IMG/VR virus record: IMGVR_UViG_3300049433_000028
Location: 1-46,482 of that record
Length of the DNA stretch: 46,482 bases
Direction: 5' to 3' (one strand)
Origin: a virus
Positions within the stretch are counted from its first letter, which is position 1. The number at the start of each line of letters is the position of its first letter. This document shows, piece after piece, positions 10,639 to 11,000 of this stretch. The position numbers were made by a program, and so were the translations under genes. The notes beneath the pieces are model-generated. The model ran no database searches. It was not told the origin of the DNA and saw only the letters and a list, made by a program, of their open reading frames with translations.

Positions 10639-10716
10639 AGTTTCCGGTAGCGCCGAGCCTACAATGCATCGCTGCCAAGGGCTCCATTCCCATTCGGAAC
10701 GGCGCTACCGGAAACT
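10639..10716 (-). other. Long-stem inverted repeat IR1 (16-bp perfect stem)
   Basis: 10639-10654 is the exact reverse complement of 10701-10716 (AGTTTCCGGTAGCGCC). The 46-base loop can form an inner GAGCC/GGCTC helix and a TTCC/GGAA mini-hairpin. No U-tract follows, so it is not a simple terminator. The outer 12 bases of the stem are shared with the neighbouring tRNA-like element. Confidence 0.85.
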
Positions 10717-10729
10717 TCCTTCTATCAAC

Positions 10730-10817
10730 TTCCGGTAGGGCTGGCAGGATTTGAACCTGCGCATCAAGCGTCCTTTGACGTCTGACTCTACCAGGCTGAG
10801 TTACAGCCCTACCGGAA
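10730..10817 (-). ncRNA. tRNA-like element with extended acceptor stem (IR2)
   Basis: On the minus strand, 10810-10736 folds with a perfect 7-bp acceptor stem (AGGGCTG/CAGCCCT). It has a D-arm ACTC/GAGT with an AGCCTGGTA loop and a T-arm GCAGG/CCTGC with TTCAAAT. The 24 bases between the D- and T-arms do not make a canonical 5-bp anticodon stem with a 7-base loop, so no anticodon can be assigned with confidence. The acceptor stem continues outward for 7 more pairs (TTCCGGT/ACCGGAA), giving a 14-bp helix that buries the discriminator base. It could be a degenerate tRNA or a tRNA mimic. Confidence 0.7.
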
Positions 10818-10828
10818 ACTGACTTCCC

Positions 10829-10885
10829 CCGCGCGCCGGTCAGCGCTTGAAACTCCTGGCTCTGAGCCATGAGCCCGGCGCGCGG
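10829..10885 (-). other. Long-stem inverted repeat IR3 (11-bp GC stem)
   Basis: 10829-10839 (CCGCGCGCCGG) pairs perfectly with 10875-10885. The 35-base loop holds an inner hairpin GGCTC-T-GAGCC (10858-10868). On the minus strand the loop also reads GGCTCAG and GTTTCAAG, which are reminiscent of tRNA D- and T-arm sequence. The outer stem sequence is shared with IR4. Confidence 0.8.
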
Positions 10886-10933
10886 ATTCGTTCAGACAGA
10901 CTATTCTCGGTCTGTCAGCAAGCTGTGTCGTCC

Positions 10934-11000
10934 CCCGCGCGCCGGCTTTTCACTGCACGGCTTTGAATGGCCCAGCGTGGCTAAGTTGCTGGCGCGCGGG
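10934..11000 (-). other. Long-stem inverted repeat IR4 (12-bp stem, one mismatch)
   Basis: 10934-10945 (CCCGCGCGCCGG) pairs with 10989-11000 (CTGGCGCGCGGG). The single imperfect pair is G-U if read from the plus strand and C/A if read from the minus strand. On the minus strand the loop contains AACTTAGCC, matching the D-arm of the tRNA-like element in 8 of 9 bases, and ATTCAAA, like its T-loop. A further hairpin (ACAGAC/GTCTGT, about 10894-10915) lies between IR3 and IR4. Confidence 0.78.

What the first reader, a model, noticed from the sequence alone, without database searches (positions are those of the whole stretch)
10639..11000. Array of four long-stem, large-loop RNA elements in two stem-sharing pairs
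Seen: between the DUF2815 gene and the next gene are 372 bp without a credible gene but with four inverted repeats. IR1 (16 bp, perfect) and IR2 (14 bp) share the outer stem AGTTTCCGGTAG, and IR3 and IR4 share CCCGCGCGCC. Each has a loop of 35-60 bases with its own inner hairpin. Known: simple terminators have short loops and U-tracts, which these lack. Inference: a structured non-coding RNA, or a set of tRNA-like mimics, embedded in the replication operon. Shared arms would also allow pairing between units, as in a switch.
Basis: partly seen in the sequence, partly recalled or inferred. Interest (0 to 1): 0.82.

Follow-up and report, generated by a model that had tools for sequence, protein, structure and literature searches.

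The report
Intergenic RNA hairpin array with tRNA-like element
Between two replication genes of an uncultivated phage lies a run of very stable RNA hairpins, one of them an oddly built tRNA, and two of the hairpins share their stem with an uncatalogued RNA motif that fills the same kind of gap in other phages, so they probably act as punctuation that separates neighbouring genes on one long message.

Summary
In detail: four long-stem, large-loop inverted repeats (arms 17, 14, 11 and 10 bp) fill 10623-11010. Shuffles of that stretch never give more than one, and the fold energy has z about -9.

The gene order and IR2, a tRNA on the minus strand (Rfam 44.3 bits), show that the array is read as minus-strand RNA, flush between the DUF2815/SSB stop codon and the next start. 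That tRNA is odd: 8-nt anticodon loop, no U33, acceptor stem prolonged to about 20 bp.

IR3 and IR4 share their arm CCCGCGCGCC with a hairpin family absent from Rfam. A search with the arms alone found it in other uncultivated phages, in the same kind of slot, with flanks GUCCCG...NNNUGGGC that were not searched for; its stem covaries (33 double-change cells against 5.2 shuffled). The window copies keep stem and slot but not the flanks, so they are not full members.

The tRNA-mimic idea fits IR2 only. A pairing switch between units is disfavoured by 11-16 kcal/mol.

Most likely this is cis-acting mRNA punctuation (processing, stability, translational insulation). That mechanism is inferred, not shown.

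The parts
10623..11010 (-). Whole intercistronic array, flush between the DUF2815/SSB stop codon (11011-11013) and the SD/start of the next ORF (start codon 10622)
   Evidence: MFE -195 kcal/mol, z -8.97
10928..11006 (-). IR4: first hairpin of the transcript; arms 10934-10943/10991-11000 plus lower stem UCGU/ACGA, loop 47; starts about 4 nt after the SSB stop codon
   Evidence: model R1 match 19.6 bits on the sense strand (21.1 on the other) through the stem only
10895..10916 (-). small 7-bp hairpin between IR4 and IR3
   Evidence: mean pair probability 0.96
10829..10885 (-). IR3: 11-bp perfect GC stem, 35-nt loop with an inner hairpin
   Evidence: model R1 18.3 bits
10723..10824 (-). IR2: tRNA-like element whose acceptor stem is prolonged to about 20 bp by leader-trailer pairing
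   Evidence: pair probability 0.99
10736..10810 (-). tRNA body within IR2: acceptor AGGGCTG/CAGCCCT, D-arm and T-arm canonical, 8-nt anticodon loop without U33, alternative AAAG tetraloop
   Evidence: Rfam RF00005 44.3 bits, E 2.7e-6; ARAGORN 10734-10810 tRNA-???
10634..10721 (-). IR1: last hairpin, 17-bp perfect stem and three-way junction; ends about 12-17 nt before the next start codon
   Evidence: -48.9 kcal/mol, z -6.75
11011..11655 (-). gene directly upstream: Enc34/Gp2.5-like ssDNA-binding and annealing protein (DUF2815)
   Evidence: PF10991 E 3.5e-26, phrog_112 E 2e-29
10380..10622 (-). gene directly downstream: 80-aa ORF of unknown family, followed by a 62-aa ORF and DNA polymerase A (7912 to about 10110)
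13315..13376 (-). similar single element in another intergenic gap of the same operon: 11-bp arms, 40-nt loop, between the 161-aa and 46-aa ORFs
   Evidence: weak R1 match, 6.6-7.9 bits

Best explanation
The array is a cis-acting RNA block in the minus-strand replication mRNA. Right after the SSB stop codon the transcript folds, in order, into IR4, a small hairpin, IR3, a tRNA-like element inside a 20-bp stem (IR2), and IR1; the Shine-Dalgarno region of the next gene follows at once. Shown: the position, the sense strand, the stability, the tRNA match, and that covarying hairpins with the same arm lie flush between stop codon and start codon in other phages. Inferred: the block works as mRNA punctuation. 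The double-stranded stems (and perhaps RNase P or tRNase Z acting on the tRNA-like unit) give cleavage sites and shield the 3' end of the abundant SSB message, and they uncouple translation of the downstream orf80-orf62-polymerase part, so that SSB and polymerase can be expressed at different levels from one operon.
For: Flush fit between stop codon and start codon, the same geometry as the R1 family: stop codon within 15 nt upstream in 25 of 34 members, a sense-strand ORF start within 20 nt downstream in 19 of 34. R1 members also sit after SSB (L107, L109, L146, L155, L159, L161, L163, L164, L171), before DUF2800-side genes and before pol, ahead of unrelated proteins, which suits a general intercistronic role better than a gene-specific one. 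R1 stem covaries: 99.5% paired, 33 double-change cells against 5.2 +- 1.8, with G-U pairs among the variants. Tandem copies exist (L163, L096). IR3 and IR4 are the only clear R1 matches in the window, while 939 kb of unselected relatives give nothing above 15.5 bits. No U-tracts after the stems. Another phage group has different covarying twin hairpins in the same slot, one loop complementary to the start region.
Against: No transcript or cleavage data. R1 has only 1-3 copies per genome, fewer than a general RNA-processing signal might have. The conserved R1 flanks point to specific recognition that simple punctuation does not need, and IR3/IR4 lack these flanks. The closest relatives (L010, L011, L094) manage without the array.
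Confidence: 0.45

Rival explanations
1. The array is (the precursor of) a separate non-coding RNA that acts in trans as a tRNA mimic: the tRNA elbow is presented on a stable scaffold and binds a host tRNA-handling factor or nuclease.
For: IR2 keeps a tRNA elbow (GG in the D-loop, TTCAA in the T-loop) but has an 8-nt loop without U33 and a buried acceptor end. The related phage L096 has tRNA halves in permuted order with a capped acceptor stem beside two canonical R1 hairpins (0 of 60 control regions). L126 has an arm-matching hairpin next to two ordinary tRNAs.
Against: The other three units have no tRNA match. The position flush between stop and start codons suggests a cis role. Most R1 members have no tRNA nearby.
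Confidence: 0.2
2. DNA-level role: single-stranded hairpins that serve as priming or replication-origin sites for the phage's Prim-Pol/PriCT primase, as hairpin ssi sites do for plasmid primases (analogy from own knowledge).
For: 1-3 copies per genome, in the replication module. The window's primase has Prim-Pol and PriCT_2 domains. Stems are equally stable on the other strand.
Against: R1 is on the coding strand wherever flanking genes were identified, flush between stop and start codons; U-G and G-U pairs are kept in the stems; a tRNA lies on the same strand. A DNA role needs none of these.
Confidence: 0.12
3. Cis-acting processive antiterminator like HK022 put RNA: the nascent hairpins bind RNA polymerase and let it read through later terminators in the long early operon.
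For: put RNAs are about 70-nt pairs of stem-loops in early phage operons (PMC9378689); here and in relatives hairpins come in adjacent pairs.
Against: put sites lie downstream of the early promoters; this array is in mid-operon. The stems here are long and perfect, with loops of 35-60 nt, and the inner stem sequence varies freely in R1. No put model was tested.
Confidence: 0.1
4. An ordinary phage tRNA gene that happens to be flanked by strong but functionally trivial hairpins.
For: 44.3-bit tRNA match; tRNA genes are common in phages; APSE-2 carries tRNA-Lys in the same interval, on the other strand.
Against: Aberrant anticodon arm, a 13-bp leader-trailer stem, four stems in 388 nt that shuffles never reproduce, and the same arm with covariation support in other phages.
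Confidence: 0.12

Closest known systems
R1 hairpin motif found here in uncultivated phages (GUCCCG-CCCGC...GCGGG-NNNUGGGC), not in Rfam
   Same: identical 10-nt arm in IR3/IR4, large variable loop, place after the SSB stop codon, sense strand, tandem copies in some phages
   Different: IR3/IR4 lack the conserved flanks and the internal loop; the window adds a tRNA-like unit and a second stem type (IR1/IR2)
tRNA (Rfam RF00005)
   Same: acceptor, D- and T-arms and elbow nucleotides; 44.3 bits
   Different: 8-nt anticodon loop without U33, an alternative tetraloop arm, acceptor stem continued by 13 bp of leader-trailer pairing
T7-type intercistronic RNase III sites (from own knowledge)
   Same: long double-stranded hairpins in the gaps of a phage early operon, without U-tracts
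   Different: loops of 35-60 nt with inner hairpins, four in a row, a tRNA included; cleavage not tested
HK022 put RNA (PMC9378689)
   Same: adjacent stem-loops in a phage early transcript
   Different: about 70 nt, promoter-proximal, bulged stems; here long perfect stems in mid-operon
GOLLD and ROOL (PMC12286853)
   Same: stable structured phage RNAs often near tRNAs
   Different: no Rfam match; this array is smaller and has another architecture

Membership tests
tRNA (RF00005) | cloverleaf that passes the curated covariance-model score | tested here: met
   44.3 bits against a gathering score of 29, minus strand
tRNA (RF00005) | 7-nt anticodon loop with U33 and a readable anticodon | tested here: not met
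   ARAGORN: 8-nt loop TCAAAGGA, A-C mismatch in the stem, anticodon given as four letters
tRNA (RF00005) | acceptor end free for maturation, CCA encoded or added | tested here: inconclusive
   A-CC-G follows the acceptor stem but is paired in a 13-bp extension
R1 motif (this work) | GC-rich stem that begins CCCGC/GCGGG with a large variable loop | tested here: met
   IR4 19.6 bits and IR3 18.3 bits on the sense strand; null in 939 kb at most 15.5 bits
R1 motif (this work) | conserved flanks GUCCCG (5') and NNNUGGGC (3') with an internal loop | tested here: not met
   IR3/IR4 match model positions 15-73 or 16-69 only; full members score 36-73 bits
R1 motif (this work) | sense strand, flush between stop codon and next start | tested here: met
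   window; family
intrinsic terminator | GC hairpin with a short loop followed by a U-tract | tested here: not met
   loops of 35-60 nt and no U-tract after any of the four stems
RNase III processing site | double-stranded stem of about 20 bp | tested here: met
   IR1 and IR2 stems of about 20 bp by folding
RNase III processing site | cleavage by RNase III | not testable with these tools
   needs an in vitro cleavage assay or end mapping
HK022 put antiterminator | read-through of terminators by contact with the RNA polymerase zinc-binding domain | not testable with these tools
   needs a reporter assay
GOLLD / ROOL | match to the Rfam models | tested here: not met
   no match at the gathering score in the window or at E up to 10 in 10600-11020
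replication origin or primase ssi hairpin | primer synthesis or origin activity | not testable with these tools
   only the gene neighbourhood fits

The most novel reading that the evidence does not exclude
A new class of phage structured RNA: covarying GC-stem hairpins with conserved flanks (R1), set between replication genes and in some phages combined with tRNA-like structures that are permuted or have buried ends, together forming a regulatory or processing module that uses tRNA mimicry to organise the replication mRNA. The window array would be a compound, divergent version.
Probability: 0.35. Interest if true: 0.78.

Novelty: new variant of a known kind. Interest (0 to 1): 0.6.

Why it matters
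Phage operons must make much SSB and little polymerase from one message, and outside T7-like models it is poorly known how. A family of covarying hairpins, absent from Rfam, that sits exactly between stop and start codons of these genes gives a concrete, testable candidate. If the link with tRNA-like structures holds, it would also show tRNA mimicry used to organise a phage mRNA.

Tried and rejected
Pairing switch between units: alternatives cost 11-16 kcal/mol. Intrinsic terminators: no U-tracts, large loops. Four tRNA mimics: only IR2 matches. Known RNA family: no Rfam hit besides tRNA in the window, and none at the gathering score in nine relatives; a permissive search of six motif loci gave one sub-threshold snoRNA hit away from the motif; permissive matches of hairpins to eukaryotic miRNA models were treated as chance. 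Covariation of the window's own stems: not possible, since neither DUF2815 as query nor the exact IR1 arms found relatives, one genome scan gave one distant fragment, and the closest contigs (pol 51-57%) lack the array. Cultured phages with R1: none found by blastn. Several arm-only matches lie inside long ORFs (L108, L112, L120, L133 and others) and were set aside as probable chance or coding matches. A weak permuted-tmRNA match (9.6 bits) was taken as chance. Literature: no paper in the library was found that describes such a motif for DUF2800/DUF2815 genes, but the library is partial.

Full report
OBSERVATION. The window is a 46,482-base virus record. Its early operon runs on the minus strand: DUF2800 (11943-13190), DUF2815/Enc34-like ssDNA-binding protein (SSB, 11011-11655), the gap 10623-11010, an 80-aa ORF, a 62-aa ORF, DNA polymerase A, then helicase and Prim-Pol primase. 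Shuffles of the 388 nt with kept dinucleotides never gave more than one such repeat in 1000 runs, and no 400-nt stretch in 100 whole-window shuffles held more than two. The fold is far more stable than shuffles on either strand (z about -9), and in the ensemble each of the four stems has a mean pair probability of 0.93 to 1.00.

WHICH STRAND, AND WHAT IR2 IS. Rfam and ARAGORN both find one tRNA in the whole window, and it is IR2 read on the minus strand, that is, the strand of the operon (44.3 bits, E 2.7e-6). The D-arm, T-arm and acceptor stem are canonical. The anticodon arm is not: ARAGORN draws an 8-nt loop TCAAAGGA with an A-C mismatch and no U33, and the fold prefers a CGUC-AAAG-GACG tetraloop. 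The acceptor stem continues into 13 bp of leader-trailer pairing, the stem part it shares with IR1. So IR2 is either a tRNA that must be cut out of a long duplex or a tRNA-like structure that no longer decodes; the data here do not decide. IR1, IR3 and IR4 have no tRNA match even at E = 10.

RELATIVES WITHOUT THE ARRAY. The closest relatives by polymerase are L096 (57% identical), L094 and L011 (52%) and L010 (51%). None has the array after SSB (L096 has two hairpins there). L010 and L011 were read directly and show only weak folds there. The exact stems of the window can therefore not be tested by covariation.

AN UNCATALOGUED HAIRPIN FAMILY WITH THE SAME ARM. L096 carries CCCGCGCGCC...GGCGCGCGGG twice in a gap of about 420 nt upstream of DUF2800, plus two hairpins after its SSB gene. 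A scan of viral contigs with only these arms and a free loop gave 47 stretches. About a dozen share flanks that were not part of the query, GAGTCCCG before and NNN(T)GGGC after the stem, and three of them (L107, L109, L146) sit directly after the SSB stop codon, the place of IR4. A second scan fixed the flanks and the first five stem pairs but left the rest of the stem free; it gave 35 stretches, most of them with longer pairing by different sequences (a few, such as L157, L158, L168 and L173, look like chance and were left out). On 31 sequences the stem is 99.5% paired, with 33 double-change cells against 5.2 +- 1.8 in shuffles and 16 further pair types against 7.6. Caution: in the second scan the flanks and the outer five pairs are constant by construction; in the first scan the whole 10-bp arm was fixed. 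The test is thus of the five inner pairs, mainly in loci L150-L173 plus the L126 variant. G-U and U-G pairs occur among the variants, which suits RNA better than DNA. Searches of nine relatives at gathering thresholds and of six motif loci at permissive ones found no Rfam family for it.

WHERE THE FAMILY SITS. In 25 of 34 members a sense-strand ORF stops within 15 nt before GUCCC (typically 4-5 nt), and in 19 of 34 a sense-strand ORF starts within 20 nt after GGGC. The gene before is often SSB; the gene after varies (an 84-aa conserved protein, other small proteins, once the polymerase). There are 1-3 copies per genome, some in tandem (L163, L096). The window array has the same geometry: IR4's lower stem starts about 4 nt after the SSB stop codon, and IR1 ends 12-17 nt before the next start codon.

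IS THE WINDOW A MEMBER? With a covariance model of the family (R1), IR4 and IR3 are the only clear matches in the window, 19.6 and 18.3 bits on the sense strand. Unselected relatives, 939 kb, give nothing above 15.5 bits, so the match is not a usual chance event. But it covers the stem only: the flanks and internal loop are missing, and full members score 36-73 bits (one divergent locus, L119, 24). The reverse strands of true members also score about 20 bits. IR3/IR4 therefore sit in the same slot with the same stem but are not full members.

tRNA-LIKE STRUCTURES NEARBY IN RELATED PHAGES. In L096 a T-arm with the 3' acceptor half precedes a 5' acceptor half with a D-arm (about 112-205), the order of a permuted tRNA, with the acceptor stem capped by a hexaloop. 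ARAGORN accepts 240 of 696 rejoined versions (they overlap and are not independent) against 1 of 3000 random joins, and a scan of permuted segments found it in L096 only, with none in 60 control regions. In L126 an arm-matching hairpin lies beside tRNA-Asn and tRNA-Tyr. Three cases suggest a link between this stem type and tRNAs, but most family loci have no tRNA.

OTHER HAIRPINS IN THE SAME SLOT. A group of relatives found through the helicase (L025-L088, from environmental contigs) has twin hairpins between SSB and polymerase, of another sequence, with strong covariation (67 double-change cells against 22.4 +- 3.9). In many of them the loop of the second hairpin is complementary to the start region of the next gene (TGCTGATAC with GTATCAGCA), which suggests translational control; that third helix itself shows almost no double changes, so it is a proposal. 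Among cultured phages, BPP-1 and Caulobacter phage Jess A have long-stem hairpins there too. Structured RNA in this interval is thus recurrent in this kind of replication module.

MECHANISM. The position, strand and generality across different downstream genes favour cis-acting punctuation of a polycistronic message: folding in order of transcription, protection and processing of the SSB message, and separation of its translation from the polymerase part. Processing enzymes (RNase III for the stems, RNase P or tRNase Z for IR2) are inferred from general knowledge; nothing here shows cleavage. The rivals are a trans-acting tRNA mimic, a priming or origin hairpin at DNA level, a put-like antiterminator, and a plain tRNA with incidental hairpins.

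NOVELTY. Intercistronic hairpins and phage tRNAs are known kinds. What appears new is the R1 motif itself (no Rfam family, no paper found in a partial library) and the compound array with an aberrant tRNA. I file it as a new variant of a known kind, with about one chance in three that it belongs to a new class of phage RNA.

Noticed in passing
L096:112-205 (+): tRNA halves in permuted order: T-arm and 3' acceptor half first, then a capped acceptor stem, then the 5' half with a D-arm; next to two full R1 hairpins. Found in none of 60 control regions.
   Followed up: partly
L025-L088, e.g. L044:976-1141: Twin covarying hairpins between SSB and polymerase in a group of environmental phages; the loop of the second is complementary to the start region of the downstream gene, a possible translation-controlling pseudoknot.
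   Followed up: partly
L126:10642-10887 (-): tRNA-Asn and tRNA-Tyr (with encoded CCA) followed directly by a CCCGCGCGCC-armed hairpin.
   Followed up: partly
window 15837-15907 (-): Long stem (12 bp perfect arms plus more), 47-nt loop, followed by CTTCTTTTTG: a large-loop terminator-like element in another gap of the operon.
   Followed up: no
L002:3222-3293 and L006:3344-3408: Long-stem hairpins after the SSB gene in the cultured phages BPP-1 (16-bp arms, 40-nt loop) and Caulobacter phage Jess A: handy experimental surrogates.
   Followed up: no
L107, L109, L146, L159, L163, L171, downstream of the R1 element: A conserved small protein of about 84 aa (MFSxxIxEN...LIQLLS) is encoded directly after the hairpin in many phages; function unknown. 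A similar protein also follows SSB in L011 and L094 without the hairpin.
   Followed up: no
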